DNA of 12,856 nucleotides from a bacterium (GTDB lineage: Bacteria; UBP15; UBA6099; DSWB01). The stretch covers positions 1 to 12,856 of the forward strand of contig JAGUYV010000186.1 in assembly GCA_020061125.1 (NCBI GenBank), given 5' to 3'. Shown piece after piece: positions 1 through 12,856 of this stretch. Each line of letters starts with the position of its first letter. Position 1 is the first letter of the stretch. A program made the translations under genes and the position numbers. The notes beneath the pieces were generated by a model. That model was not told where the DNA came from and ran no database searches. It worked only from the letters and a program-made list of their open reading frames with translations.

Positions 1-228
1 GCGGGCGATCCGCCGCTGGCCATGGCCGCGTTCCGCAAAATCATGACCAACCACCCGGAATCTCCCCACGCCCTGCGCGCGGGCCTTGCCATCGCGCACA
101 TGTCCCTGTCTCTTTACAGCGATCCGGCCGCGGCGCACCAGTACCTGGCTTGGGTCATGGGCGCGGCCCCGCACTCGCCCGAGGCCGCGCAGGCGCGCGC
201 CATGATAGCTTCCATTCACAGGCTCTGA
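1..228 (+). CDS. C-terminal end of a TPR-like protein (5' end outside window)
   Basis: The frame is open from base 1 to a TGA at 226-228, giving about 75 residues. The internal ATG at 22 is probably not the start, because the frame is open upstream of it. The visible part is all-helical in character and reads as two TPR-like helical hairpins: a segment with A-F-R-K-I-M-x(3)-P-E-S-P-H-A and a second with A-x-x-Y-L-A-W-V-M-x(3)-P-x-S-P-E-A-A. The Pro at the hairpin turns and small Ala/Gly at packing positions fit tetratricopeptide repeats. TPR repeats usually act as protein-protein scaffolds. The parent could be a rhomboid-type protease or a secretion or assembly factor with a TPR tail, but nothing visible decides this. 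There is no link in sequence to the hydrogenase genes. Confidence 0.6.
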   Translation, partial: AGDPPLAMAAFRKIMTNHPESPHALRAGLAIAHMSLSLYSDPAAAHQYLAWVMGAAPHSPEAAQARAMIASIHRL

Positions 229-319
229 ATTGATTTCAAAAGAACGCATACCGAATTCCGGGCGCGCTCTGCACAAATCCGTGAGCCTGCCGCCGGTGTC
301 CATTTCTGTCAAATTCGGC

Positions 320-325
320 TATAAT
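320..325 (+). promoter_or_regulatory. Possible -10 box (TATAAT) ahead of the PIN-TRAM gene
   Basis: A perfect TATAAT lies at 320-325 in a locally AT-rich patch within the 98-base gap after the TPR-like gene. No convincing -35 hexamer sits 16-18 bases upstream; the best is TGTCCA near 297-302. If the box is used, transcription would begin near 332, which would exclude the ATG at 327 and favour the in-frame ATGs at 342 or 351. Confidence 0.35.
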
Positions 326-326
326 T

Positions 327-1505
327 ATGCGCGAAACGCTTATGGCTGGCATGGAATTCAGAAAACACCCGGCGCCGGGCCAGCAGCAGGTCTCGGCGCT
401 TTCCGCGGCGGTCAAGATTCTGACCGTGACCGCGTTTGTGATGTTCTTCAATTTTGTGCCGCGGCTGGTGCAGCGCGTGTACAACCTCACGAGGCCGCAA
501 AGCTCCGCAGCCGAGTACATGAACACGAATGTGGAGTATGTGACCATCGCGGGCGTGGTGCTGGGCGCGCTCATCGGCATGGCGCTGTCGCCGCAGATCG
601 AGAATGCGATGCTGCAGACGCACCGGCAGCTTGCCCGTGCGCTGCGCCGCTACCCCCCGCAGGTCATGGCCTCTTCCAGCATCGGCGTGGTCGTGGGCCT
701 GATTTTCGCCACCCTGATTTCCATGCCCGCGCACATGTTCTTTCCCGAACAGCGCACGGCCGGGCTGCTGATCGCGGTTTCGTGCGCCCTGATTTTCGGG
801 TATCTGGGAGGCCTGATGTTCAGCCGCCTGAACCTGTGGGGGGCCGCGCCGGGCGCATCGCCCGATTCCCCGGCCGGCGCCGCCGCGCCCAAGGTGCTCG
901 ACAGCAGCGTGATTATTGACGGCCGCATCGGCAGGCTCTGCCAGGAGCGGTTCATCGAGGGCCGCATTCTGATCCCGTCGCCCGTGCTCAACGAGATCCA
1001 GCGCATCGCGGACGACACGGACAAGGTGCGGCGCGAGCGCGGACGCAACGCCCTGGCGCTCATCAGCCAGTTGCGCGACATGGAGGGCGTGAACCTGGAA
1101 GTGGTGGATGTACGCCGCGACAGGGACAGCTTCGACGAAAGTGTGGACGCGCAGCTCGTGGCCTACGCCAAGCGCATCGGCGGCGTGCTGGTGACCAACG
1201 ACTTCAACCTCACCAAGGTGGCCGGGCTGCGCGGCGTGCGCGTGTACAACCTCAACCTCCTGGCCAACGAGTTCCGCAAAACCCTGCTGCCCGGCGACAC
1301 GGTCGAAGTGCATGTGGTCAAGTACGGCAAGGAGGGCGGCCAGGGCATCGCCTACCTGGACGACGGCACCATGGTCGTGATCGAGAGCGGCGACAAGTTC
1401 ATCGGCGAAGCCATCGTGGTCGAGGTCAGCAGCATCATGCAGACCGTGGCCGGCCGCCTCATCTTCGCGCGCTTGGCCCCCAACCGCGAGCCGACCGTGC
1501 AGTAG
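327..1505 (+). CDS. Membrane-anchored PIN-TRAM domain protein, YacL-like
   Basis: This 392-residue protein has three parts. Four likely transmembrane helices lie near residues 27-48, 69-88, 113-138 and 145-168. A PIN-type nuclease domain starts at about residue 190 with L-D-S-S-V-I-I-D-G-R (acidic residues D192 and D198) and continues through P-V-L-N-E-I-Q and V-T-N-D-F-N-L, whose acidic residues are the usual metal ligands of the fold. A C-terminal TRAM domain covers about 318-385 (L-P-G-D-T-V-E-V, then G-Q-G-I-A-Y-L-D-D-G-T-M-V-V). This order is that of the YacL family of membrane-bound PIN-TRAM proteins; the TRAM part binds RNA in other proteins. Its target is unknown and RNA cleavage is inferred from the PIN residues. 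No Shine-Dalgarno sequence precedes ATG 327, 342 or 351, so the start is uncertain; the longest frame is given. The neighbours do not suggest a shared pathway. Confidence 0.88.
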   Translation: MRETLMAGMEFRKHPAPGQQQVSALSAAVKILTVTAFVMFFNFVPRLVQRVYNLTRPQSSAAEYMNTNVEYVTIAGVVLGALIGMALSPQIENAMLQTHRQLARALRRYPPQVMASSSIGVVVGLIFATLISMPAHMFFPEQRTAGLLIAVSCALIFGYLGGLMFSRLNLWGAAPGASPDSPAGAAAPKVLDSSVIIDGRIGRLCQERFIEGRILIPSPVLNEIQRIADDTDKVRRERGRNALALISQLRDMEGVNLEVVDVRRDRDSFDESVDAQLVAYAKRIGGVLVTNDFNLTKVAGLRGVRVYNLNLLANEFRKTLLPGDTVEVHVVKYGKEGGQGIAYLDDGTMVVIESGDKFIGEAIVVEVSSIMQTVAGRLIFARLAPNREPTVQ

Positions 1506-1555
1506 CGGCTCCCGACCGGAACAATCCCCCTGTTCATCCCGTTGTGATTTTCGCA

Positions 1556-1561
1556 TATGAT
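1556..1561 (+). promoter_or_regulatory. Possible -10 box (TATGAT) ahead of the PfpI-family gene
   Basis: TATGAT, one mismatch from TATAAT, lies in the gap after the PIN-TRAM stop codon and about 50 bases before the next start. A TTCATC at 1533-1538 has 17-base spacing but matches the -35 consensus poorly. The only support is local AT-richness in an otherwise GC-rich sequence. Confidence 0.25.
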
Positions 1562-1611
1562 ATCTGCATGGCCAAACCTGCGGAAAAAACATCGTTGAAG
1601 AGGTGACGCGC

Positions 1612-2127
1612 ATGGAACTCAAGGGAAAAAAAGTGGCGGTGCTTGTGGAGAACCTGTACCAGGAGCTTGAGGTGTGGTATCCCGTGCTGCGGTTCCGCGA
1701 GGCCGGGGCCGCCGTGAAAATCGTCGGCCCGAAAAAAGGCGAGTACGCGAGCAAGCTGGGCTATCCGGCCGTGGCGGACGCGGCCGCATCCTCGGTCAGG
1801 GCCGCGGACTTCGACGCCATCGTGATCCCCGGCGGGTTCGCGCCGGACCGCATGCGCATGGACCGGGCCATGGTCAAACTCGTGGCCGACGGCATCAAGC
1901 AGGGCAAGTGCGTGGCCGCCATCTGCCACGGCGGATGGATGCTGTGCTCGGCCCGAGGCGTCGAGGGCAAAAAGCTCACCAGCTATGTGGCCATCAAGGA
2001 TGACATGATCAACGCCGGCGTCAAATGGGTGGACAAAGAAGTGGCCGTGGACGGCAACATCGTCACCAGCCGCAAGCCCGACGACCTGCCCGCATTCTGC
2101 CGCGCCATCATTGAGATGATCAAATAA
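1612..2127 (+). CDS. DJ-1/PfpI-family protein (YraA/YhbO-like)
   Basis: The product is a 171-residue single-domain protein of the usual length for this family. The nucleophile elbow reads V-A-A-I-C-H-G-G, with Cys105 followed by His106, and the N-terminal strand V-A-V-L-V-E-N-L-Y-Q-E-L-E supplies the partner glutamate, probably Glu18. The end, V-T-S-R-K-P-D-D-L-P-A-F-C, is typical of the intracellular PfpI/YhbO branch. Members of this branch have been described as stress-related proteases, chaperones or glyoxal/methylglyoxal-handling enzymes, so the exact reaction is left open. The start at 1612 is chosen over the in-frame GTG at 1603 because GAGG at 1600-1603 then sits 8 bases upstream as a ribosome-binding site. 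It is a likely single gene or loosely linked to the next one, which follows after 59 bases. Confidence 0.9.
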   Translation: MELKGKKVAVLVENLYQELEVWYPVLRFREAGAAVKIVGPKKGEYASKLGYPAVADAAASSVRAADFDAIVIPGGFAPDRMRMDRAMVKLVADGIKQGKCVAAICHGGWMLCSARGVEGKKLTSYVAIKDDMINAGVKWVDKEVAVDGNIVTSRKPDDLPAFCRAIIEMIK

Positions 2128-2186
2128 GGCGATCTGGCCCGCATTGTCGCAGACTGCTCCAAACCGCAGCAACGAGAGGAAACCGC

Positions 2187-2981
2187 ATGGACTATCACAT
2201 TCGATATAAAGGCGAGAAGGGCCACATTCCCGTGGTGCGAGTTGGCGACGGGGGCCTGAAGCTGATTTCATTTGACCTGCTGCTGTTCGACGAGGGCATG
2301 GAGTACTGCGAGGACACGGGCGGCAGCGAAGCGTGCATTGTGATCCTGGGAGGCAACGCCACAGTGAGCTGCGGAGGCAAAACCTGGGAGCACATCGGAC
2401 TGCGGCGCGATGTGTTCGACGGACCCGCCGCGGCTGTGTATGCGCCCCGGGATTCGCGATTCGAGTTCAGGGCCGCGAGCGGCCCGGTCGAGGCCGCGGT
2501 GCTGCGCACGCTCACGCACGAGACATTCGAGCCGGCTTACATCCCGCCCGATATGGTGAACATCGTGCACCGGGGCAAGGACAACTGGAGCCGCACCGTG
2601 CACGACATCCTCGACCACCGTACGCCAGCGGGCAACATGCTGGTGGGCGAAACCTTCAGCCCGCCGGGAAACTGGTCCAGCGCGCCCCCGCACCGGCACG
2701 ATGTCGAGGATCCGCCCAATGAAACCGACCACGAGGAAATCTACCTGTTCAAGGTCAAGCCCGAGCAGGGCTTCCAGCTCATCCGGCTCTATACCGACGA
2801 CTACGCACTGAACACCGCGTATTGCGTGGAGCAGAACGACACCGTGATCATCACGAGGGGCTATCACCCGGTGGCCGCAGGGCCGGGATATCAGGGCTAT
2901 TACCTGTGGCTGCTGGCGGGCCGGTCGCGCACAATCTGCCCGCGCGACGACCCGCGCCACGCATGGCTCAAAAACACATGA
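2187..2981 (+). CDS. iolB: 5-deoxy-glucuronate isomerase, IolB/KduI cupin family
   Basis: The 264-residue protein is close to the usual IolB length and has the two-half cupin layout. The C-terminal half carries the family core: G-E-T-F-S-P-P-G-N-W-S-S near residue 150, then P-P-H-R-H-D with His169 and His171, Glu183/Glu184 in D-H-E-E-I-Y-L-F, and His227 in R-G-Y-H-P-V. These are the expected metal ligands. P-G-Y-Q-G-Y-Y-L-W and the C-terminal D-D-P-R-H-A-W also match IolB. IolB converts 5-deoxy-glucuronate to 5-dehydro-2-deoxy-gluconate in cytosolic myo-inositol breakdown. A clear ribosome-binding site, GAGAGGA at 2174-2180, sits 6 bases before ATG. No other inositol gene is in the window, so the pathway role is inferred from the family; a related sugar-acid isomerase is the main alternative. 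Confidence 0.85.
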   Translation: MDYHIRYKGEKGHIPVVRVGDGGLKLISFDLLLFDEGMEYCEDTGGSEACIVILGGNATVSCGGKTWEHIGLRRDVFDGPAAAVYAPRDSRFEFRAASGPVEAAVLRTLTHETFEPAYIPPDMVNIVHRGKDNWSRTVHDILDHRTPAGNMLVGETFSPPGNWSSAPPHRHDVEDPPNETDHEEIYLFKVKPEQGFQLIRLYTDDYALNTAYCVEQNDTVIITRGYHPVAAGPGYQGYYLWLLAGRSRTICPRDDPRHAWLKNT

Positions 2982-3005
2982 GCCGCGCCGCGCACGCGCT
3001 TTTTT
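2981..3005 (+). terminator. Likely rho-independent terminator after iolB
   Basis: The iolB stop codon runs straight into a GC-rich hairpin. AGC(C)GCG at 2981-2987 can pair with CGCGCT at 2995-3000, giving six pairs with one bulged C and a seven-base loop. Six T residues follow (3000-3005). The position between iolB and the hydrogenase control region supports a role in separating the two transcription units. The stem is short and bulged. Confidence 0.5.
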
Positions 3006-3405
3006 CCGTAAAGTTTGCTGACAGAATGTAAAGACAACCAACACCGCGCGCACAGCGAGTGCTGATTCTGCATGAGTTTCGAAATTTCCCAACACGCAAA
3101 TCACGGGCGGCGTGGAGATGCAGGACGGTTCCGGCGGGACAAATTACTGCTCGTGAAAACCTCCGGTTAAACCTGTAAACGGCGCCGCACAGCCGAGTGT
3201 TCAACTTCAAATGCATGATTCTGGCATCATAATTGCATAAACCCATGTCAGGCAATTCGGGATAGGAAGTGCGGTTGTTTCCATGCGGGCAGCCGGAACG
3301 GCGGTATGCGCGCAAAGCGGAAACCCCGCGAACGGCGGGCTTGAGGCGAAATGCCGCGAAAGCCCCAGGTTGAATGCGCCCTGGAACCGGGGGAGGAGAC
3401 GCGCC
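3006..3405 (+). other. Non-coding control region and leader of the hydrogenase operon
   Basis: This is the only long gene-free stretch. Its first part (3006-3240) is noticeably more AT-rich than the genes around it and contains the palindrome TTTCGAAA near 3078-3085 and ATGCAT near 3210, as expected of a regulatory region. A sigma-54-like promoter lies at 3221-3237. From about 3248 to 3405 the sequence turns GC-rich and would be a leader of some 158 bases. It offers two mutually exclusive hairpins, GCGG (3317-3320) with CCGC (3326-3329) or CCCGC (3325-3329) with GCGGG (3335-3339), and a third, CCAGG (3365-3369) with CCTGG (3380-3384), just before the ribosome-binding site. No known riboswitch class was recognised and no convincing small gene was seen. 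Confidence 0.7.
3221..3237 (+). promoter_or_regulatory. Sigma-54 (-24/-12) type promoter for the hydrogenase operon
   Basis: CTGGCATCATAATTGCA matches the RpoN consensus YTGGCACG-N4-TTGCW at all core bases: the GG at 3223-3224, the GC at 3235-3236, the flanking T-GG-CA and TT-GC-A, and the exact ten-base gap between GG and GC. Only the two bases after TGGCA differ (TC instead of CG). The start point would fall near 3248, about 158 bases ahead of hydC. A sigma-54 promoter needs an ATP-driven enhancer-binding activator; no such gene is visible here, so it would be encoded elsewhere. The match is by eye to a short motif, but its place in the main intergenic region on the right strand adds weight. 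Confidence 0.6.
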
Positions 3406-3861
3406 ATGACCAAAATCGCGCAACTGGAGAAATCAATCAAAAAGCTGGACAGGAACAAGGGGCCGCTGATCCCGCTGCTGCAGCAGACCCAGGCCATCTA
3501 CGGGTGGCTGCCCGAGGAGGCGCTGCGGCACATCAGCGAAGCGCTGGACATCCCGTTGAGCAAGGTGTACGGGGTGGTCACCTTTTATTCCCAGTTCTAC
3601 CTCAAGCCGCGGGGCCGGCACTGCATCAAGTCGTGCCAGGGCACGGCGTGCCATGTGCGCGGCGGCAAAAATGTGCTGCAGGCGCTGGAACACCACCTCG
3701 AGGTTTCCGAGGGCGGCACCACCAAGGATTTGAAGTTTTCGCTGGACACGGTGGCGTGCCTGGGCACCTGCTTCCTGGCGCCGGTGGTCATGGTGAACGA
3801 GGACTACTACGGCGATGTGGCGCCCAAGGAAGTGCCCAAAATTCTGAAAAACTACGAGTGA
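3406..3861 (+). CDS. hydC: [FeFe]-hydrogenase subunit HydC, NuoE-like [2Fe-2S] protein
   Basis: This 151-residue protein is a thioredoxin-fold [2Fe-2S] subunit of the NuoE/HndA type. The N-terminal helical bundle includes P-L-I-P-L-L-Q-Q-T-Q-A-I-Y-G-W-L-P and L-D-I-P-L-S-K-V-Y-G-V-V-T-F-Y-S-Q-F, both family hallmarks. The four cluster ligands are Cys77 and Cys82 in C-Q-G-T-A-C-H-V-R-G and Cys118 and Cys122 in C-L-G-T-C-F-L-A-P. Cys73 is an additional, non-ligand cysteine. In HydABC-type hydrogenases this subunit pairs with HydB and sits next to its FMN. Start 3406 is chosen because GGGAGGAGA at 3391-3399 is an excellent ribosome-binding site, whereas the frame's extension back to 3283 has none and reads like leader sequence. 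It is the first gene of the operon, 42 bases ahead of hydB. Confidence 0.95.
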   Translation: MTKIAQLEKSIKKLDRNKGPLIPLLQQTQAIYGWLPEEALRHISEALDIPLSKVYGVVTFYSQFYLKPRGRHCIKSCQGTACHVRGGKNVLQALEHHLEVSEGGTTKDLKFSLDTVACLGTCFLAPVVMVNEDYYGDVAPKEVPKILKNYE

Positions 3862-3903
3862 CGGCCGCGCGCCGCACAGCCCGCACAAGGAGAGGATCCT
3901 GCC

Positions 3904-5796
<1,893 letters not shown>

Positions 5797-5832
5797 CGCG
5801 GGCCGCGCGCATTCCCTTGAGAGGTGAAGAAA

Positions 5833-7554
5833 ATGGACAAGATAACACTCACGATAGACGGAAAGGAAGTGGCCGTGGACAAGGGGGCCACGGTTCTGGC
5901 GGCGGCGCGCGCGGCCGGGGTCACAATACCCACGCTTTGCTGGCTCGAGGGGGTGCAGGCCATCGGCGCGTGCCGCATGTGCGTGGTCGAGGTGCAGGGC
6001 GCGCGCACCCTTCAGGCCTCATGCGTGCTGCCCGCGGCACAGGGCATGGTCGTCAAAACGCACTCCCCGCGCGTGCGCGAAGCCCGCAAGATGATCCTGC
6101 AACTAATCCTCTCCGACCACCGCATGGAGTGCCCCACCTGCGCCCGCAACATGAACTGCGAGCTGCAGGCCCTGGCCAAGGAATACGGCATCGTGGACAT
6201 CCCGTTCGAGGGCGCGAAATCCTCGGTGCGCATTGACGATTCCTCCCCGTCGCTGATCCGCGACGCGAGCAAGTGCATTCTGTGCCAGCGCTGCGTGACC
6301 GTGTGCCACGAGATCCAGACCGTGGGCGCGCTGTTCCCGGCGCACCGCGGGTTCGCCACCACGATCTCGACCGCGTTCGATCTGCCTCTGGGCGAGGCCG
6401 CGTGCGTGAACTGCGGACAGTGCGCCCTGGTGTGCCCGGTGGGCGCCATTGTGGAGCGGGACGACACCGAGAAAGTTTGGCACGCCCTGGCCGACCCGGA
6501 CAAAGTTGTGGTGGTGCAGACCGCGCCTGCAATCCGCGCAGCCATCGCCGAGGAGTTCGGACAGGCCCCGGGCAAGGCCGTCACCGGCCAGATGGTGGCC
6601 GCTCTGCGCCGCCTTGGCTTCGACAAGGTGTTCGACACCCAGTTCACCGCGGACCTCACCATCATAGAGGAGGGCAACGAGCTGCTGCACAGGGTCCAGG
6701 ATGGCGGCCCGCTGCCGCTGATCACCTCGTGCAGTCCGGGCTGGGTCAAGTTCATCGAGCATTTCTACCCCGAGCTGCTCAAGCATGTGTCCTCGTGCAA
6801 GTCCCCGCAGCAGATGTTCGGCTCCATAGCCAAAACCTGGTACGCGCAGCAGATCGGCAAGAAGCCCGAGGACATGTTCGTGGTGTCCATCATGCCGTGC
6901 ACGGCCAAGAAGTTCGAATGCCAGCGGCCCGAGATGTACGACAGCGGGGTGCAGGATGTGGATGTGGTGCTGACCACGCGCGAAACCGCTCGCATGATCA
7001 AGCAGGCGGGCATCAACCTGCTGGAACTCGAGGACGAAATGTTCGACGACCCGCTGGGCGAGTCCACGGGCGCGGCCGTAATTTTCGGCGCGTCCGGCGG
7101 CGTGATGGAAGCGGCGCTGCGCACGGTGTACGAAGTGGTCACTAAAAAGCCGCTCGAGAACCTGGACTTCGAGGATGTGCGCGGGCTTAAAGGCGTGCGC
7201 GCAGCCACGGTCAAGGTGGGGGACCTGGATGTCAAGGTGGCGGCCACGAGCGGCCTGGGCAATGCGCGCGTGCTGCTCGATGCGATCCGCGACGGCAAGG
7301 CCGATTATCACTTCATCGAGATCATGGCCTGTCCGGGCGGGTGCCTGGGCGGCGGCGGCATGCCCATTCCCACAAACTGGCCCGTGCGCGAGGCCCGCGC
7401 CAGAGCCATTTACGAGGAGGACAAGAGACTGCCCATCCGTAAGTCGCACGAAAACCCGTTCATCAAGAAAATCTATGATGAATTCCTCGAGGAACCCCTC
7501 GGGGAGAAATCCCACAGCCTGCTTCACACGCACTACACCAAACGGGGCGTGTGA
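5833..7554 (+). CDS. hydA: [FeFe]-hydrogenase catalytic subunit HydA (HndD-like)
   Basis: The 573-residue catalytic subunit makes or splits H2. FeS sites in order: [2Fe-2S] with Cys36, Cys47, Cys50, Cys64; a His-ligated [4Fe-4S] with His96, Cys100, Cys103, Cys109; two ferredoxin [4Fe-4S] clusters with Cys148/151/154/158 and Cys191/194/197/201. The H-cluster domain shows L1 as T-S-C-S-P-G-W (Cys300, Ser301), L2 as M-P-C-T-A-K-K-F-E (Cys356) and L3 as E-I-M-A-C-P-G-G-C (Cys500, Cys504). Counting from Clostridium pasteurianum CpI gives a constant offset of one at these sites, so Ser301 falls at CpI Cys300, normally a ligand of the H-cluster cubane. It lacks the C-terminal [2Fe-2S] extension of T. 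maritima HydA and ends like HndD. No signal peptide is seen, so it is cytoplasmic. ATG 5833 is preferred over GTG 5824 because GAGAGGTGA at 5819-5827 is its ribosome-binding site. Confidence 0.97.
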   Translation: MDKITLTIDGKEVAVDKGATVLAAARAAGVTIPTLCWLEGVQAIGACRMCVVEVQGARTLQASCVLPAAQGMVVKTHSPRVREARKMILQLILSDHRMECPTCARNMNCELQALAKEYGIVDIPFEGAKSSVRIDDSSPSLIRDASKCILCQRCVTVCHEIQTVGALFPAHRGFATTISTAFDLPLGEAACVNCGQCALVCPVGAIVERDDTEKVWHALADPDKVVVVQTAPAIRAAIAEEFGQAPGKAVTGQMVAALRRLGFDKVFDTQFTADLTIIEEGNELLHRVQDGGPLPLITSCSPGWVKFIEHFYPELLKHVSSCKSPQQMFGSIAKTWYAQQIGKKPEDMFVVSIMPCTAKKFECQRPEMYDSGVQDVDVVLTTRETARMIKQAGINLLELEDEMFDDPLGESTGAAVIFGASGGVMEAALRTVYEVVTKKPLENLDFEDVRGLKGVRAATVKVGDLDVKVAATSGLGNARVLLDAIRDGKADYHFIEIMACPGGCLGGGGMPIPTNWPVREARARAIYEEDKRLPIRKSHENPFIKKIYDEFLEEPLGEKSHSLLHTHYTKRGV

Positions 7555-7585
7555 GATTCGCGGCACGCTGTGACAGGCGGTTCAC

Positions 7586-8611
7586 ATGGACAAGCCAGCC
7601 ACTGGCGACAACGGACAACTGCATAGGACGGAGCGGCTCGGATGGGTTTCGGTAGTCCTTGCAGGTTGTGCGATGATCCCGGCCGTGCTAATCGCGGCCG
7701 GGGTCTCGCACCCTCTTGCGCACGCCGCACTGGTGCTGCTCCTGGGCGCGGGCCTGCTCGGGCTGATGACCTGGTATCTGCGGGTGCGGCGCTCGGTGCG
7801 AAAGCTCAACGAGCTTATCACCGGCCTGTATGAAAAATCGCGCGAGCAGGATATGGAATACCACAAGCTCGAAGAGCTGCGCACCCTGCAGAAGACCTCC
7901 ATGCGCACGGCGTCGCACCAGTTGCGCGCCCCGCTCGCCGCGCTCCAGAGCTGCCTGTCCGTGCTGCTCGCGGCCGAGGACATTGATGCGGAAGACGCGC
8001 ACAGACTGCTGCACGACGCGGCCGCGCGCGGCGACGACATGATGGAACTGGTCAACGACATCCTGGGCCTGGCGCAGGCCGAATCCGCGGCGCGCATCGA
8101 AACCGAGGTGGACACGGAAGACATAGATGTGGAGCAGGCCGTTCGCGAGATCGTGAACTTTTTCTCACCGCGCGCAAAAGAGCGCGGCGTAACCTACCGG
8201 GTGGAAGTCAAGAACCCGCCCGGCGCGCTCAAGGCGAACCGCAAGCTGTTCAACCAGGTCGTTCTGAACCTTGTCAGCAACGCATTCAGGTATTCGGACG
8301 AGGGCCGTGAGGTGATCGTGACCCTGGACTCGCCCGAGCCGGACAGGCTCACCATGGAAGTGCGGAACTGGGGCCTGGTCATTGCGCCAGAGGAACGCGA
8401 GAAGATCTTCGAAGATTTCTGGCGCAGCGACGAGGCCCGAAGGCGCGTGAAACGCGGCACCGGCCTGGGCCTGTCCATCGTGAGGAACATCATCGAGTTC
8501 CGCGGCGGAAGCATCCATGTGGAGAGCGACGCCGAAAACGGCACCCGGTTCATCGTGGACATTCCGCGACACAGAAAGGGCGTGGATCACAATGGCAAAA
8601 GCAAAGAGTAA
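7586..8611 (+). CDS. Membrane-bound sensor histidine kinase inside the hydrogenase operon
   Basis: The 341-residue kinase has two likely transmembrane helices near residues 18-40 and 44-65, joined by only a few residues, so there is no extracytoplasmic sensor domain. A short coiled segment (about 70-100) leads into the HisKA domain with S-H-Q-L-R-A-P-L, phospho-acceptor His111. The ATPase domain follows: N-box N-L-V-S-N-A-F-R-Y-S (Asn228, Asn232), an atypical G1 box R-N-W-G-L-V-I-A-P (Asn261 where Asp is common), F-box I-F-E-D-F-W-R and G2 box G-T-G-L-G-L-S-I-V (291-299). It is expected to autophosphorylate and pass phosphate to the regulator encoded next, with which it overlaps by 20 bases. 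It begins 31 bases after hydA, with AGGCGG at 7575-7580. The signal is unknown; membrane state or interaction with a partner protein are inferences. Confidence 0.93.
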   Translation: MDKPATGDNGQLHRTERLGWVSVVLAGCAMIPAVLIAAGVSHPLAHAALVLLLGAGLLGLMTWYLRVRRSVRKLNELITGLYEKSREQDMEYHKLEELRTLQKTSMRTASHQLRAPLAALQSCLSVLLAAEDIDAEDAHRLLHDAAARGDDMMELVNDILGLAQAESAARIETEVDTEDIDVEQAVREIVNFFSPRAKERGVTYRVEVKNPPGALKANRKLFNQVVLNLVSNAFRYSDEGREVIVTLDSPEPDRLTMEVRNWGLVIAPEEREKIFEDFWRSDEARRRVKRGTGLGLSIVRNIIEFRGGSIHVESDAENGTRFIVDIPRHRKGVDHNGKSKE

Positions 8612-9044
8612 GGCTCCGGCCAAGGCGGCCAAACCGGAAAGCCCCAAAAAGGATCCCAAACCGGCCGGCCGCAGGAAGATCCTCATCATCGAGGACGACC
8701 CGGCCATCGTGGACTCCCTGGTCGTGCTGCTCAAGGGCAAATTCGATCTGGACGCGGCCAACGACGGCGAGGAAGGGCTTATCAAGGTCAAGTCCTTCAA
8801 GCCCGACCTCATCATCCTCGACCTGCTCATGCCGGGCCGGGACGGGTTCGATGTGGCGCGCCGCATCAAGGGCGACCCCAAGCTCAAGGGCATCCCAATC
8901 ATCGCCCTGTCCTCCTTCACCGAGCTGTACGACATGAACTTCGGCCAGGGCGGCGCCGAGAAGACCCTGCCCACCGAGGTGTATCTCACCAAGCCCCTGG
9001 ACCCGGCCACGCTTCTGCGCGAGATCAAGGAACACCTGGGCTGA
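8592..9044 (+). CDS. Stand-alone receiver-domain response regulator with basic N-terminal tail
   Basis: The 150-residue protein is a single CheY-like receiver after a 29-residue tail rich in Lys, Ala and Pro. Receiver landmarks are complete: acidic pocket Glu34-Asp35-Asp36 in I-I-E-D-D, phospho-acceptor Asp77 in I-L-D-L-L-M-P-G, Ser107 in A-L-S-S-F, and Lys134 in L-T-K-P-L. There is no DNA-binding or enzymatic output domain, so it probably acts by protein contact, as a phosphorelay intermediate, or through the charged tail. The ATG at 8592 lies inside the end of the kinase gene; the overlap implies translational coupling and a matched pair. The frame could extend back to 8517 within the kinase gene, but that is coincidental open frame. 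The gene is followed by a 55-base gap before hydG. Confidence 0.92.
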   Translation: MAKAKSKAPAKAAKPESPKKDPKPAGRRKILIIEDDPAIVDSLVVLLKGKFDLDAANDGEEGLIKVKSFKPDLIILDLLMPGRDGFDVARRIKGDPKLKGIPIIALSSFTELYDMNFGQGGAEKTLPTEVYLTKPLDPATLLREIKEHLG

Positions 9045-9049
9045 ACCAT

Positions 9050-9084
9050 CACAGGACGGCCCCGCGCCCGGCACAGGACCGCCC
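9050..9084 (+). repeat. Short near-direct repeat in the RR-hydG gap
   Basis: CACAGGACGGCCC at 9050-9062 and CACAGGACCGCCC at 9072-9084 differ at one base and start 22 bases apart, about two helical turns. They fill most of the 55-base gap before hydG. They might be a protein-binding site or chance similarity in GC-rich sequence. Confidence 0.25.
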
Positions 9085-9099
9085 GGAAAGGGCACGATC

Positions 9100-10497
9100 A
9101 TGGCTACGCTGACGCAGAGCTTCATTGACGAAAAGACGATCTTCGAAACCCTGGAGAAACACCGCCGCCCCGACCAAGCGCGCGTGCGCGCCGTGCTCGA
9201 CAAGGCGCGCGAACTCAAGGGCCTCACCCCGGACGAAACCGCGGTCCTGCTCCAGGCCGGAAGCCCCGAATTCGACGAGCTTGTTTTTCCAGCCGCGCGC
9301 GAGGTCAAGCTCGCCATCTACGGCCGCCGCCTGGTGCTCTTCGCTCCCATGTACATTACCAACGAATGCTGCAACAGTTGTCTGTACTGCGCGTTCCGGC
9401 GCGAAAACACGGGCCTCAAGCGCAAGACCCTCACCCCGGACGAGGTGCGCGCCGAAACCCGCGCCCTGGTCATGCAGGGGCACAAGCGCATCCTCATGGT
9501 CTACGGCGAAAGCTGCGGCATTGACTACATCACGGACACCATCGCCGCAGTGTACGACACCAAAGTGGACAACGGCGAAATCCGCCGCGTCAATGTGAAC
9601 CTCGCGCCCCTGTCCGTGGATGACTACAAGACGCTCAAAGGCACCGGCATCGGCACCTACCAGTGCTTCCAGGAAACCTACCACCTGGACACTTACAAGA
9701 AGATGCACCCCTCGGGACCCAAGGCGAATTTCGAGTGGCGGCTGTTCGCCCTGGACCGCGCGCAGCAGGGCGGCATTGACGATGTGGCCGTGGGCGTGCT
9801 GTTCGGACTGTACGACTGGAAATTCGAGATCCTGGCCCTTCTCCAGCATGTGGCGCACCTGGAGCGCGAGTTCGGCGTGGGTCCGCATACCATTTCATTC
9901 CCGCGCATGGAGCCTGCACTGGGAAGCGACATTTCACTGCATCCGCCCCATGAGGTGAGCGACCTCGACATGAAGCGGCTCGTGGCCATTCTGCGCCTGG
10001 CCGTGCCCTACACGGGCATGATCCTCACCACGCGCGAGCAGCCCGATATGCGCCGCGCGCTCATGGATCTGGGCACCTCGCAGTTGAGCGCCGGTTCGCG
10101 CACGCACCCCGGCGCTTACAGCGAAGACCACCGCGAACACGCGCCGGATGTGGAGCAGTTCACTCTCGGCGACACGCGGCCCCTGGACGCAGTGATCCGC
10201 GACATCGCGGACATGGGCTACATGCCCAGTTTCTGCACGGGCTGCTACCGCCTGGGCCGCACCGGCGGCGACTTCATGGACCTGGCCAAACCCGGCCTCA
10301 TCCAGAAATTCTGCCTGCCCAACGCCATGCTCACCTTCAAGGAATACCTCATTGATTACGCGTCCGAAGCCACGCGCGAGGCGGGCCTGCGCGCCATCCA
10401 GGAGCAGATGCCGGACATCCCCACTGAAAAAAGGCGCCTGGAAACCCAGGAGCGCCTGCGGCGCATCGAGCAGGGCGAGCGCGATCTGTATTTCTGA
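9100..10497 (+). CDS. hydG: [FeFe]-hydrogenase H-cluster maturase HydG (radical SAM tyrosine lyase)
   Basis: The 465-residue protein is full length for HydG. The radical-SAM cluster motif CX3CX2C is formed by Cys90, Cys94 and Cys97 in E-C-C-N-S-C-L-Y-C-A-F. The C-terminal auxiliary cluster motif CX2CX22C, diagnostic of HydG as opposed to ThiH, is Cys379, Cys382 and Cys405, with 22 residues between the last two. Further signature stretches are G-T-Y-Q-C-F-Q-E-T-Y-H and G-P-H-T-I-S-F-P-R. HydG cleaves tyrosine with SAM to yield p-cresol and dehydroglycine, which becomes the CO and CN- ligands delivered as an Fe(CO)2(CN)-cysteine synthon for the H-cluster. GGAAAGGG at 9085-9092 is the ribosome-binding site. 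It is 55 bases after the regulator and 42 before hydE, and most likely serves the HydA of this operon. Confidence 0.97.
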   Translation: MATLTQSFIDEKTIFETLEKHRRPDQARVRAVLDKARELKGLTPDETAVLLQAGSPEFDELVFPAAREVKLAIYGRRLVLFAPMYITNECCNSCLYCAFRRENTGLKRKTLTPDEVRAETRALVMQGHKRILMVYGESCGIDYITDTIAAVYDTKVDNGEIRRVNVNLAPLSVDDYKTLKGTGIGTYQCFQETYHLDTYKKMHPSGPKANFEWRLFALDRAQQGGIDDVAVGVLFGLYDWKFEILALLQHVAHLEREFGVGPHTISFPRMEPALGSDISLHPPHEVSDLDMKRLVAILRLAVPYTGMILTTREQPDMRRALMDLGTSQLSAGSRTHPGAYSEDHREHAPDVEQFTLGDTRPLDAVIRDIADMGYMPSFCTGCYRLGRTGGDFMDLAKPGLIQKFCLPNAMLTFKEYLIDYASEATREAGLRAIQEQMPDIPTEKRRLETQERLRRIEQGERDLYF

Positions 10498-10539
10498 ACC
10501 CGGAGGATGAGCGCGCGATCCCGGAAAGGCGACACGGCC

Positions 10540-11592
10540 ATGATATCGCGCGAGAAACTCATAGAACTGCTCGAAGAGCGCAGCCCGGCCCGCGTGCGCG
10601 CGCTGCTCGACACTGCGGACCGCACCCGCGCCTACGCCGTGGGCGAATCCGTGCATCTGCGCGCGCTCATCGAGATCTCGAATGTGTGCCGACGCAACTG
10701 CCTGTACTGCGGGCTGCGCGCAGCCAACAGGCATCTTCCCCGCTACCGCATGGCGGACCGGGAAATCGTGGAAGCGGTCTTGAGCGCGGCCGCACGCGGC
10801 CGCCGCACCGTGGTGCTCCAGTCCGGCGAGGACTCCGCCCTCACCGCGCCCCGCGTGGCGCGCATGATCCGCCGCATCAAGGACGCCGCAGATGTAGCCG
10901 TGACCCTTTCCCTGGGCGAATACCCCCGCGACGATTATTTTCAGATGCGCGAAGCCGGCGCGGACCGCTACCTGCTCAAGCATGAAACCGTGGACCCGGA
11001 CCTTTACAAATCCCTGCACCCCGGAATGAGCTTCGAGCGCCGCATCCGCTGCCTGGTGTGGCTCAAGGAAGCCGGGTTTCAGGCGGGCAGCGGCATGATG
11101 GTGGGACTGCCCGGCCAGTCCGCCGCAACCCTGGCCGACGACATCATCTTCCTGCGCCGCCTGGACGCGGACATGGCTGGCATCGGCCCGTTCATCCCGC
11201 ACCCGCACACACCGCTGAAACATTCTTCGCCCGGCGGCGCGGACCTGTGCCTCAAGGCCGTGGCCCTCACGCGCCTGGCGCTGCCCTTCGCGCACATCCC
11301 CGCAACAACGGCCCTGGCCACGCTCTGCCCGAACGGAACCGAGCGCGCGCTCAAGGCCGGCGCGGATGTCATCATGCCTCTGGCCACTCCGGAAAAATAC
11401 CGGCGGTTGTACGAAATCTATCCGGACCGGTCGCCCTCGTCCGACTCCGGCCCGGACAGCGTGATCGAGCTGGTGCGCCGCCTGGGCCGCACCGTGTCCC
11501 GCGACTACGGCCACACCGCGCCCCGGCTCAACCTCCTGGCGCCGTTCGACATCTCCGCATACAAGCGCGCCCTGCAGAGGTGCCCGCTGTGA
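10540..11592 (+). CDS. hydE: [FeFe]-hydrogenase H-cluster maturase HydE (radical SAM)
   Basis: The 350-residue protein carries the radical-SAM motif CX3CX2C at Cys50, Cys54 and Cys57 in I-S-N-V-C-R-R-N-C-L-Y-C-G-L-R. Family stretches V-V-L-Q-S-G-E-D, V-T-L-S-L-G-E-Y-P, A-G-A-D-R-Y-L-L-K-H-E-T, M-V-G-L-P-G-Q and G-P-F-I-P-H-P-H-T-P-L give a secure HydE call. HydE acts on the HydG-derived iron-cysteine complex to build the diiron precursor that HydF receives. The region that in T. maritima HydE holds auxiliary-cluster cysteines (after L-Y-E-I-Y-P-D) here has serines and no cysteine. Start 10540 is preferred: GGAAAGG at 10523-10529 is spaced 10 bases from it and the protein then begins like other HydE, while the ATG at 10507 directly abuts its GGAGG. 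Its stop overlaps the next gene's GTG by four bases. Confidence 0.96.
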   Translation: MISREKLIELLEERSPARVRALLDTADRTRAYAVGESVHLRALIEISNVCRRNCLYCGLRAANRHLPRYRMADREIVEAVLSAAARGRRTVVLQSGEDSALTAPRVARMIRRIKDAADVAVTLSLGEYPRDDYFQMREAGADRYLLKHETVDPDLYKSLHPGMSFERRIRCLVWLKEAGFQAGSGMMVGLPGQSAATLADDIIFLRRLDADMAGIGPFIPHPHTPLKHSSPGGADLCLKAVALTRLALPFAHIPATTALATLCPNGTERALKAGADVIMPLATPEKYRRLYEIYPDRSPSSDSGPDSVIELVRRLGRTVSRDYGHTAPRLNLLAPFDISAYKRALQRCPL

Positions 11593-12856
11593 AAAAACGC
11601 GAGACTCGAATCGAACGCGACGCGCTGGGCGAGGTCCAGATCCCCGCCGCGGCTCTGTACGGCATCCACACGGCGCGCGCCATGGAGAATTTCCGCATCG
11701 CGCGCAGGCCGCCCCACCAGGGCCTCGTCAAGGCATACGGCACTGTGAAGCTGGCGTGCGCCATGACCAACAGTTCGCTGGGCGCGTGGGACGGAGACCA
11801 CGCCAAATCCAGCGCCATCGAGCTTGCATGCCGCGAGATGTCCCTGGGGCAACTCTCGCAACATGTGGTCGTGGACGCCCTTCAGGGCGGCGCGGGCACC
11901 AGCCTGAACATGAATGTCAATGAAGTCATCGCCAACCGCGCGCTCCGGATTCTGAACAAGCCCCTCGGACAGTACGAATGCGTTTCTCCCATGGACGACA
12001 TTAATCTGCACCAGTCCACCAACGACACCTTTCCCACGGCGCTGAAGCTGGCCGCCATCCGCCTGGCGCAGAAGCTCGAAGAGCGCGTGGTGGGCCTCAC
12101 CGAGGCGTTCCAGGAAAAGGAAAAGCAGTTCGCGCATATCGTGAAAGTCGGGCGCACGCAGATGCGGGATGCGGCGCTCATCACCCTGGGCCGCGAGATG
12201 GGCGCATACGCGGACGCGCTTGCGCGCGACCGGTGGCGGCTCTACAAATGCGAAGAAAGGTTGCGCGTCGTCAACCTCGGCGGCACTGCGGTCGGCACGG
12301 GCCTGGGCGCGCCGCGCAAATATGTCTTCCGCGCCGCGGACACTCTGCGCGATGTCACCGGCATCGGCTTCGCGCGCGCAGAAAATCTCGTGGACGCCAC
12401 CCAGAACGCCGATGTGTTCGTTGAGGTGTCGGGCATCGCCAAGGCCCTGGCCGCAACCCTGTTCAAAATCAGCTCGGACCTGCGCCTGCTGTCTTCCGGC
12501 CCGGACGCGGGCCTGGGGGAGATCATCCTGCCGCCCAGGCAGGAAGGCTCGTCCATCATGCCCGGAAAAATCAATCCCGTGATCCCCGAGGCCGTATCCC
12601 AGGCCGCCATGCTCGCCATGGGCCGCGACGCGGCGCTCACCATGGCCTGCGCCATGGGGTGCCTGGAGCTGAACCCTTTCCTCCCGCTCGTGGCGCACTG
12701 CCTGCTGAACAACCTGGACGAGCTTGCGTCCGCGTGCGACATTCTACGCCGCCTGTGCGTACAGGACCTGGAAGCGGACGAGGCCCGGTGCCGCGGTTCG
12801 GTGAACGGCGCCACGGCCGCGGCCACGGCGCTGATTCCCGCGCTGGGACACGAGAC
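11589..12856 (+). CDS. aspA: Aspartate ammonia-lyase, aspartase/fumarase superfamily (3' end outside window)
   Basis: The frame stays open from GTG 11589 to the window edge: 422 residues of an expected 460-480. Superfamily motifs are in place: H-Q-S-T-N-D with Thr144-Asn145-Asp146, G-G-A-G-T-S-L-N-M-N-V-N-E near 101-113, G-R-T-Q near 187, and the signature G-S-S-I-M-P-G-K-I-N-P from Gly320, whose flexible loop carries the catalytic serine. Gln in G-R-T-Q, where fumarases have His, favours an aspartase. Aspartase splits L-aspartate to fumarate and ammonium in the cytosol. The GTGA overlap with the hydE stop implies translational coupling, so it belongs to the maturation genes rather than being a chance neighbour. 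Aspartase genes beside [FeFe] maturation genes are known in other bacteria; supply of ammonium for the azadithiolate bridge is an inference. Another amino-acid lyase of the same superfamily remains possible. Confidence 0.87.
   Translation, partial: MKKRETRIERDALGEVQIPAAALYGIHTARAMENFRIARRPPHQGLVKAYGTVKLACAMTNSSLGAWDGDHAKSSAIELACREMSLGQLSQHVVVDALQGGAGTSLNMNVNEVIANRALRILNKPLGQYECVSPMDDINLHQSTNDTFPTALKLAAIRLAQKLEERVVGLTEAFQEKEKQFAHIVKVGRTQMRDAALITLGREMGAYADALARDRWRLYKCEERLRVVNLGGTAVGTGLGAPRKYVFRAADTLRDVTGIGFARAENLVDATQNADVFVEVSGIAKALAATLFKISSDLRLLSSGPDAGLGEIILPPRQEGSSIMPGKINPVIPEAVSQAAMLAMGRDAALTMACAMGCLELNPFLPLVAHCLLNNLDELASACDILRRLCVQDLEADEARCRGSVNGATAAATALIPALGHE

What the first reader, a model, noticed from the sequence alone, without database searches (positions are those of the whole stretch)
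1..12856. The tetranucleotide ACGT is missing from the entire window, with codon-level avoidance
Reading every CGT in the window (well over a hundred), I found none preceded by A, although ACG and CGT are each common. At this base composition, a few tens of ACGT would be expected by chance. The codon pairs show it is not random: Asp, Asn, His or Tyr followed by Val was written GAT/AAT/CAT/TAT-GTN in every pair I checked, although the genes otherwise prefer C-ending codons. Examples are GAC-GAT-GTG at 9778-9786 and AAC-AAT-GTC at 4946-4954. Avoidance spans coding and non-coding DNA and all genes, so it is a genome-wide property. ACGT is palindromic; likely causes are a restriction-modification system cutting ACGT (the specificity of MaeII and HpyCH4IV) or methylation of its cytosine followed by deamination to ATGT/ACAT.
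Basis: partly seen in the sequence, partly recalled or inferred. Interest (0 to 1): 0.7.

Follow-up and report, generated by a model that had tools for sequence, protein, structure and literature searches.

The report
Genome-wide avoidance of ACGT sites
This uncultured bacterium has erased almost every copy of the four-letter DNA word ACGT, and of several other typical restriction sites, most likely because ACGT-cutting restriction-modification systems have acted on its lineage for a long time; this is an extreme case of a known phenomenon.

Summary
ACGT occurs 0 times in the window against 24.5 expected (Markov), or 33.5 ± 3.4 under synonymous-codon shuffling. It is genome-wide: 39 against 1,025 in 450 kb of other contigs, and 17 of the 39 lie on two prophage-like contigs. 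Six same-order relatives have normal ACGT (O/E 0.78-1.03). This is the signature of type II restriction-modification (R-M) avoidance. Deamination is disfavoured: ATGT/ACAT are not in excess, and lost Thr ACG codons went to ACC rather than ACA. The genome shows one m5C methyltransferase, in a cassette with a type II restriction-enzyme family (DUF4928) and Vsr. The only close orthologous cassette among 386 genomes (62-64% identity) lies in G320, of another small phylum, where ACGT is also nearly gone (O/E 0.07). However, G320's congener G191 is equally depleted without a detectable cassette, and the cassette genes look younger than the avoidance. R-M-driven avoidance is well supported; this cassette as the ACGT enzyme is plausible but unproven.

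The parts
1..12856 (.). Whole window free of ACGT (0 of about 24.5 expected); also free of CTSAG (0/10), RTCGAY (0/8), GRGCYC (0/21), CAGCTG (0/3) and AAGCTT (0/4)
9778..9786 (+). Example of synonymous escape, Asp-Asp-Val written GAC-GAT-GTG in HydG gene
4945..4953 (+).
3283..12854 (+). Host genes in which the avoidance is written: 2Fe-2S thioredoxin-like subunit (3283-3861), NuoF-like subunit (3904-5796), group A6 [FeFe] hydrogenase (5824-7554), histidine kinase (7586-8611), response regulator (8517-9044), HydG (9100-10497), HydE (10507-11592), aspartate ammonia-lyase (from about 11583, cut by the window end). Ordinary host genes; none is a methyltransferase or nuclease of the R-M kind.

Best explanation
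The absence of ACGT is near-complete avoidance of a type II restriction site. An ACGT-specific restriction-modification system, present in this lineage for a long time, makes any unmethylated ACGT a potential chromosome break, so cells whose chromosomes have lost ACGT are favoured until almost none remain. Coding sequence escapes at no protein cost by synonymous choices (NAT-GTN, ACC before T, CGC after A). Shown here: the depletion, its genome-wide extent, its restriction to this lineage within the order, its co-occurrence with other avoided palindromes, and the synonymous escape routes. Inferred: that an endonuclease is the cause, and that the present-day enzymes are the m5C MTase + DUF4928 + Vsr cassette on contig C128 (about 0.5 that this cassette recognises ACGT; about 0.35 that it is also the historical cause rather than the successor of a lost system).
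For: 0 of 24.5 in window and 22 of 982 in the sampled genome without prophage contigs; normal in six same-order relatives and not below 0.2 in any of 67 named loci with expected >=15. Coding and non-coding both depleted. Five further restriction-type palindromes nearly absent. Prophage-like contigs C8 and C259 carry 17 of 39 residual sites in 12.7 kb. The genome's only PF00145 m5C MTase lies in a cassette with DUF4928 (PADLOC type II REase, E 1.7e-42) and Vsr. Known ACGT MTases M.MaeII and M.Hpy99XI are m5C enzymes. The only close orthologous cassette (G320) sits in a genome with ACGT 5/77 and is its only m5C MTase.
Against: No recognition specificity was measured. G191, congener of G320, is equally ACGT-poor (2/35) with no DUF4928 or m5C MTase found in a 93% complete genome. 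The G320 cassette itself holds 2 of that genome sample's 5 ACGT, and the G000 cassette is 48% GC in a 60-64% host, so the cassette looks younger than the avoidance. Looser DUF4928 relatives do not go with ACGT loss (G057, plasmids). Few MTases were found for six avoided sites; 21% of the genome is missing.
Confidence: 0.78

Rival explanations
1. Mutational decay: an m5C methyltransferase modifies the C of ACGT, and deamination turns sites into ATGT/ACAT faster than they are rebuilt; no endonuclease pressure is needed.
For: The only PF00145 enzyme in the genome is an m5C MTase and known ACGT MTases are m5C. NAC-GTN to NAT-GTN is a C-to-T change.
Against: ATGT O/E is 1.11, as in relatives (0.95-1.11). 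Compared with relatives, the Thr ACG share lost before T went to ACC, not ACA (suggestive, since the excess at equilibrium would be modest). A Vsr gene in the operon would counter deamination. CTSAG, CAGCTG and AAGCTT have no CpG yet are avoided alike.
Confidence: 0.08
2. Vestige: the avoidance was imposed by R-M systems that have since been lost (or lie in the missing 21% of the MAG); the C128 cassette has a different target and the match with G320 is chance.
For: Six avoided sites but only three or so chromosomal MTases found. G191 keeps the avoidance without a detectable cassette. Vestiges of lost R-M systems are common (PMC4687349). Cassette composition looks recent.
Against: The one close orthologous cassette among 386 genomes sits in one of the very few ACGT-poor genomes seen. 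Near-zero depletion (0.02) would decay if pressure had been gone for long.
Confidence: 0.4
3. The cause is another MTase of this genome, such as the solitary beta-class enzyme on C172 or the Dam-like D12 enzyme on C38, acting with an unseen nuclease.
For: Both are present in the genome and on contigs that carry the host's avoidance signature.
Against: Relatives with 57-59% identical copies of the C172 enzyme have normal ACGT. No nuclease was recognised beside either, though this was not searched exhaustively. D12 enzymes are adenine MTases, whereas the ACGT MTases found in papers are m5C.
Confidence: 0.07
4. Compositional or codon-usage artefact with no selection on the word itself.
For: CTAG shows a generic depletion in this and many genomes.
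Against: Markov, Karlin and synonymous-shuffle controls all leave the ratio at 0-0.03; same-order relatives are normal; all three codon phases and intergenic DNA show it.
Confidence: 0.01

Closest known systems
Restriction-site (palindrome) avoidance in prokaryotic genomes (Rusinov et al. 2015, PMC4687349; Gelfand & Koonin 1997, cited there)
   Same: A palindromic type II site is underrepresented genome-wide; several sites at once; relatives differ; traces outlast enzymes.
   Different: Unusually complete: Karlin tau 0.031 against the paper's cut-off of 0.78, with five other sites at 0.03-0.16.
ACGT-specific R-M systems: MaeII (PMC10113651), M.Hpy99XI/jhp0435 (PMC3936762), HpyCH4IV
   Same: Same site; characterised MTases MaeII and Hpy99XI are m5C enzymes, as is the C128 MTase by family.
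   Different: No sequence comparison with these could be made here; the C128 REase is DUF4928, and its specificity is unmeasured.
DUF4928 cassettes of MOBQ plasmids (Pseudomonas, Burkholderia, Serratia, Aeromonas)
   Same: Same gene order m5C MTase - DUF4928 - (Vsr); DUF4928 55-57% identical.
   Different: MTase only 37-40% identical, putative recognition region about 13%; these plasmids do not avoid ACGT, and five of the seven plasmids tested lack GGWCC instead.

Membership tests
Type II restriction-site avoidance | Palindromic site underrepresented below the accepted cut-off (Karlin ratio 0.78) | tested here: met
   tau 0.031 in G000; cut-off from PMC4687349
Type II restriction-site avoidance | Avoidance genome-wide, coding and non-coding, beyond codon usage | tested here: met
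Type II restriction-site avoidance | Genome encodes, or kin encode, an R-M system of that specificity | tested here: inconclusive
   An m5C MTase + type II REase + Vsr cassette is present, and its close orthologue sits in another ACGT-poor genome; specificity unmeasured
ACGT-specific R-M (MaeII / Hpy99XI kind) | m5C MTase of type IIP with a REase partner | tested here: met
   PF00145/TIGR00675 MTase next to DUF4928, PADLOC REase_II
ACGT-specific R-M (MaeII / Hpy99XI kind) | Recognises and modifies ACGT | not testable with these tools
   needs methylome or protection assay; only an association across genomes is available
m5C deamination hotspot | Excess of the products ATGT/ACAT and of ACA codons before T | tested here: not met
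   ATGT 1.11 as in relatives; lost ACG went to ACC relative to relatives

The most novel reading that the evidence does not exclude
The m5C MTase - DUF4928 - Vsr cassette is an ACGT-specific type II R-M system with its own mismatch-repair nuclease. That would give a target to one branch of a restriction-enzyme family still named a domain of unknown function, read from genome-wide avoidance in two unrelated small phyla.
Probability: 0.45. Interest if true: 0.45.

Novelty: new member of a known kind. Interest (0 to 1): 0.36.

Why it matters
Restriction-site avoidance is known, but depletion this close to zero for ACGT, together with near-complete loss of several other site classes in one uncultured lineage, is an unusually clean case. 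It gives a testable prediction of specificity (ACGT) for a DUF4928 restriction cassette from sequence alone, and a natural contrast (G320 with the cassette, G191 without but equally depleted, G046 normal) on whether avoidance outlives or precedes its enzyme.

Tried and rejected
The C172 MTase was rejected as the cause because its orthologues occur in non-depleted relatives. No PF02384 or Eco57I-type MTase was found. Viral contigs held no relatives of the cassette proteins. No solved structure resembles DUF4928 by sequence. The DUF4928 family as a whole was rejected as an ACGT marker: G057 and the plasmids are not depleted. More close cassettes were sought in the order and phylum of G320, but only three genomes are held there.

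Full report
OBSERVATION. A direct count finds no ACGT in the 12,856-base window. Expected: 24.5 from the ACG, CGT and CG counts; 33.5 +/- 3.4 (minimum 22 of 2000 shuffles) when synonymous codons are shuffled within the 11 window genes. In the window genes, Asn/Asp/His/Tyr before GTN is written with T in 29 of 29 cases, although 84% of such codons end in C elsewhere, and Thr before T is never ACG (0 of 23; 57 of 164 otherwise).

EXTENT. The window is contig C87 of a 4.1 Mb, 513-contig, 79%-complete MAG. In 60 other contigs (450 kb) there are 39 ACGT against 1,025 expected, and 44 contigs have none. Seventeen of the 39 lie on two contigs (12.7 kb): C8, with phage head, connector and tail genes, and C259, with a phage-type methyltransferase and endolysin. 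Without them the ratio is 22/982 = 0.02; Karlin's tau is 0.031. Coding and intergenic DNA are both depleted (11/863 and 11/140). Over 307 predicted genes, NAC before GT is 8 of 941 (72-80% C elsewhere), Thr ACG before T is 0 of 788 (34% elsewhere), and CGT makes up 0.5% of Arg codons after A (4.6% otherwise).

PHYLOGENETIC RANGE. The six held genomes of the same order have normal ACGT (0.78-1.03). Of 67 named hydrogenase-bearing loci from other bacteria with at least 15 expected sites, none is below 0.2.

NOT ONLY ACGT. An unbiased k-mer scan shows further nearly absent restriction-type sites: CTSAG 12/366, GRGCYC 27/460, CAGCTG 6/98, RTCGAY 16/175, AAGCTT 13/81. The window lacks all of these too. 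GRGCYC and CAGCTG avoidance is shared with relatives G002-G004 and G006; ACGT, CTSAG and RTCGAY avoidance is not shared with any of the six. This is what R-M history leaves: 47.9% of genome-site pairs with a type II enzyme are underrepresented against 3.9% of controls, and vestiges of lost systems are common (PMC4687349).

CANDIDATE ENZYMES. Searches of the MAG found a solitary beta-class MTase (C172), a phage MTase (C259), a distant PF01555 protein (C411), a Dam-like D12 MTase (C38), a phage D12 MTase (C78), one m5C MTase (C128), and no PF02384 or PF07669. On C128 the m5C MTase, DUF4928 and Vsr genes follow each other without gaps. DUF4928 matches PADLOC's type II restriction-enzyme model at 1.7e-42. 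Known ACGT MTases M.MaeII and M.Hpy99XI are m5C enzymes. The C172 MTase is unlikely to be the cause because relatives with 57-59% identical copies have normal ACGT.

A NATURAL TEST. DUF4928 occurs in 9 of 386 genomes. Of those examined, only G320, from another small phylum, has a close cassette: MTase 62%, DUF4928 64%, Vsr 64%. G320 is ACGT-depleted, 5/77, and the cassette MTase is its only m5C MTase. Looser relatives (G057, plasmids; MTase 37-40%, putative recognition region about 13%) show no ACGT loss; G199 (DUF4928 45%) shows partial loss, 90/182. Against a simple story: G191, same genus as G320, is equally depleted (2/35) but has neither DUF4928 nor an m5C MTase in a 93% complete genome; G320's cassette itself holds two of the five ACGT seen there, and the G000 cassette is 48% GC in a 60-64% host. 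So the avoidance appears older than the present cassette copies. The cassette may have followed an isospecific predecessor, site-poor genomes may tolerate such a cassette better, or the link is chance.

DEAMINATION. If m5C deamination had emptied the sites, ATGT/ACAT should be in excess; ATGT is 1.11 in G000 and 0.95-1.11 in relatives. Thr codons before T should collect as ACA; compared with relatives, the lost ACG share went to ACC. The codon test is only suggestive, because the excess at equilibrium would be modest. A Vsr in the operon would counter deamination. CTSAG, CAGCTG and AAGCTT contain no CpG yet are avoided alike.

VERDICT. Real, strong, genome-wide, and best explained by type II restriction-site avoidance, a known phenomenon in an extreme form. 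The C128 cassette is the leading but unproven ACGT enzyme.

Noticed in passing
G000 genome sample: window, L009-L029, L186-L224: Besides ACGT the genome nearly lacks CTSAG, GRGCYC, CAGCTG, RTCGAY and AAGCTT (O/E 0.03-0.16); CTSAG and RTCGAY avoidance, like ACGT, is not shared by its order.
   Followed up: partly
L252, L253, L258, L281, L282 (plasmids of Pseudomonas, Burkholderia, Serratia, Aeromonas): Plasmids with an m5C MTase - DUF4928 cassette strongly lack GGWCC (12/46, 4/31, 3/37, 4/39, 0/32), but the P. syringae and Azospirillum plasmids with the family do not (51/65, 63/64); perhaps that cassette's own target.
   Followed up: partly
L013 (contig C8) and L187 (contig C259): Prophage-like contigs keep ACGT (9/28 and 8/11) in an otherwise ACGT-free genome; C259 carries its own phage-type DNA methyltransferase.
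   Followed up: partly
L114, L115, L116 (G004, G003, G002): The C172-type methyltransferase orthologues in three genomes of one genus are reported with one in-frame TAG inside the match.
   Followed up: no
G191 loci L259-L266: G191 is also poor in TCGA (27/133), CATG and GCWGC, unlike its congener G320 for TCGA (552/456): R-M history differs within a genus.
   Followed up: no
window 3283-12854: Group A6 NADH-dependent [FeFe] hydrogenase operon with HydG, HydE, a histidine kinase/response regulator pair and an aspartate ammonia-lyase: an ordinary hydrogenase cluster.
   Followed up: partly
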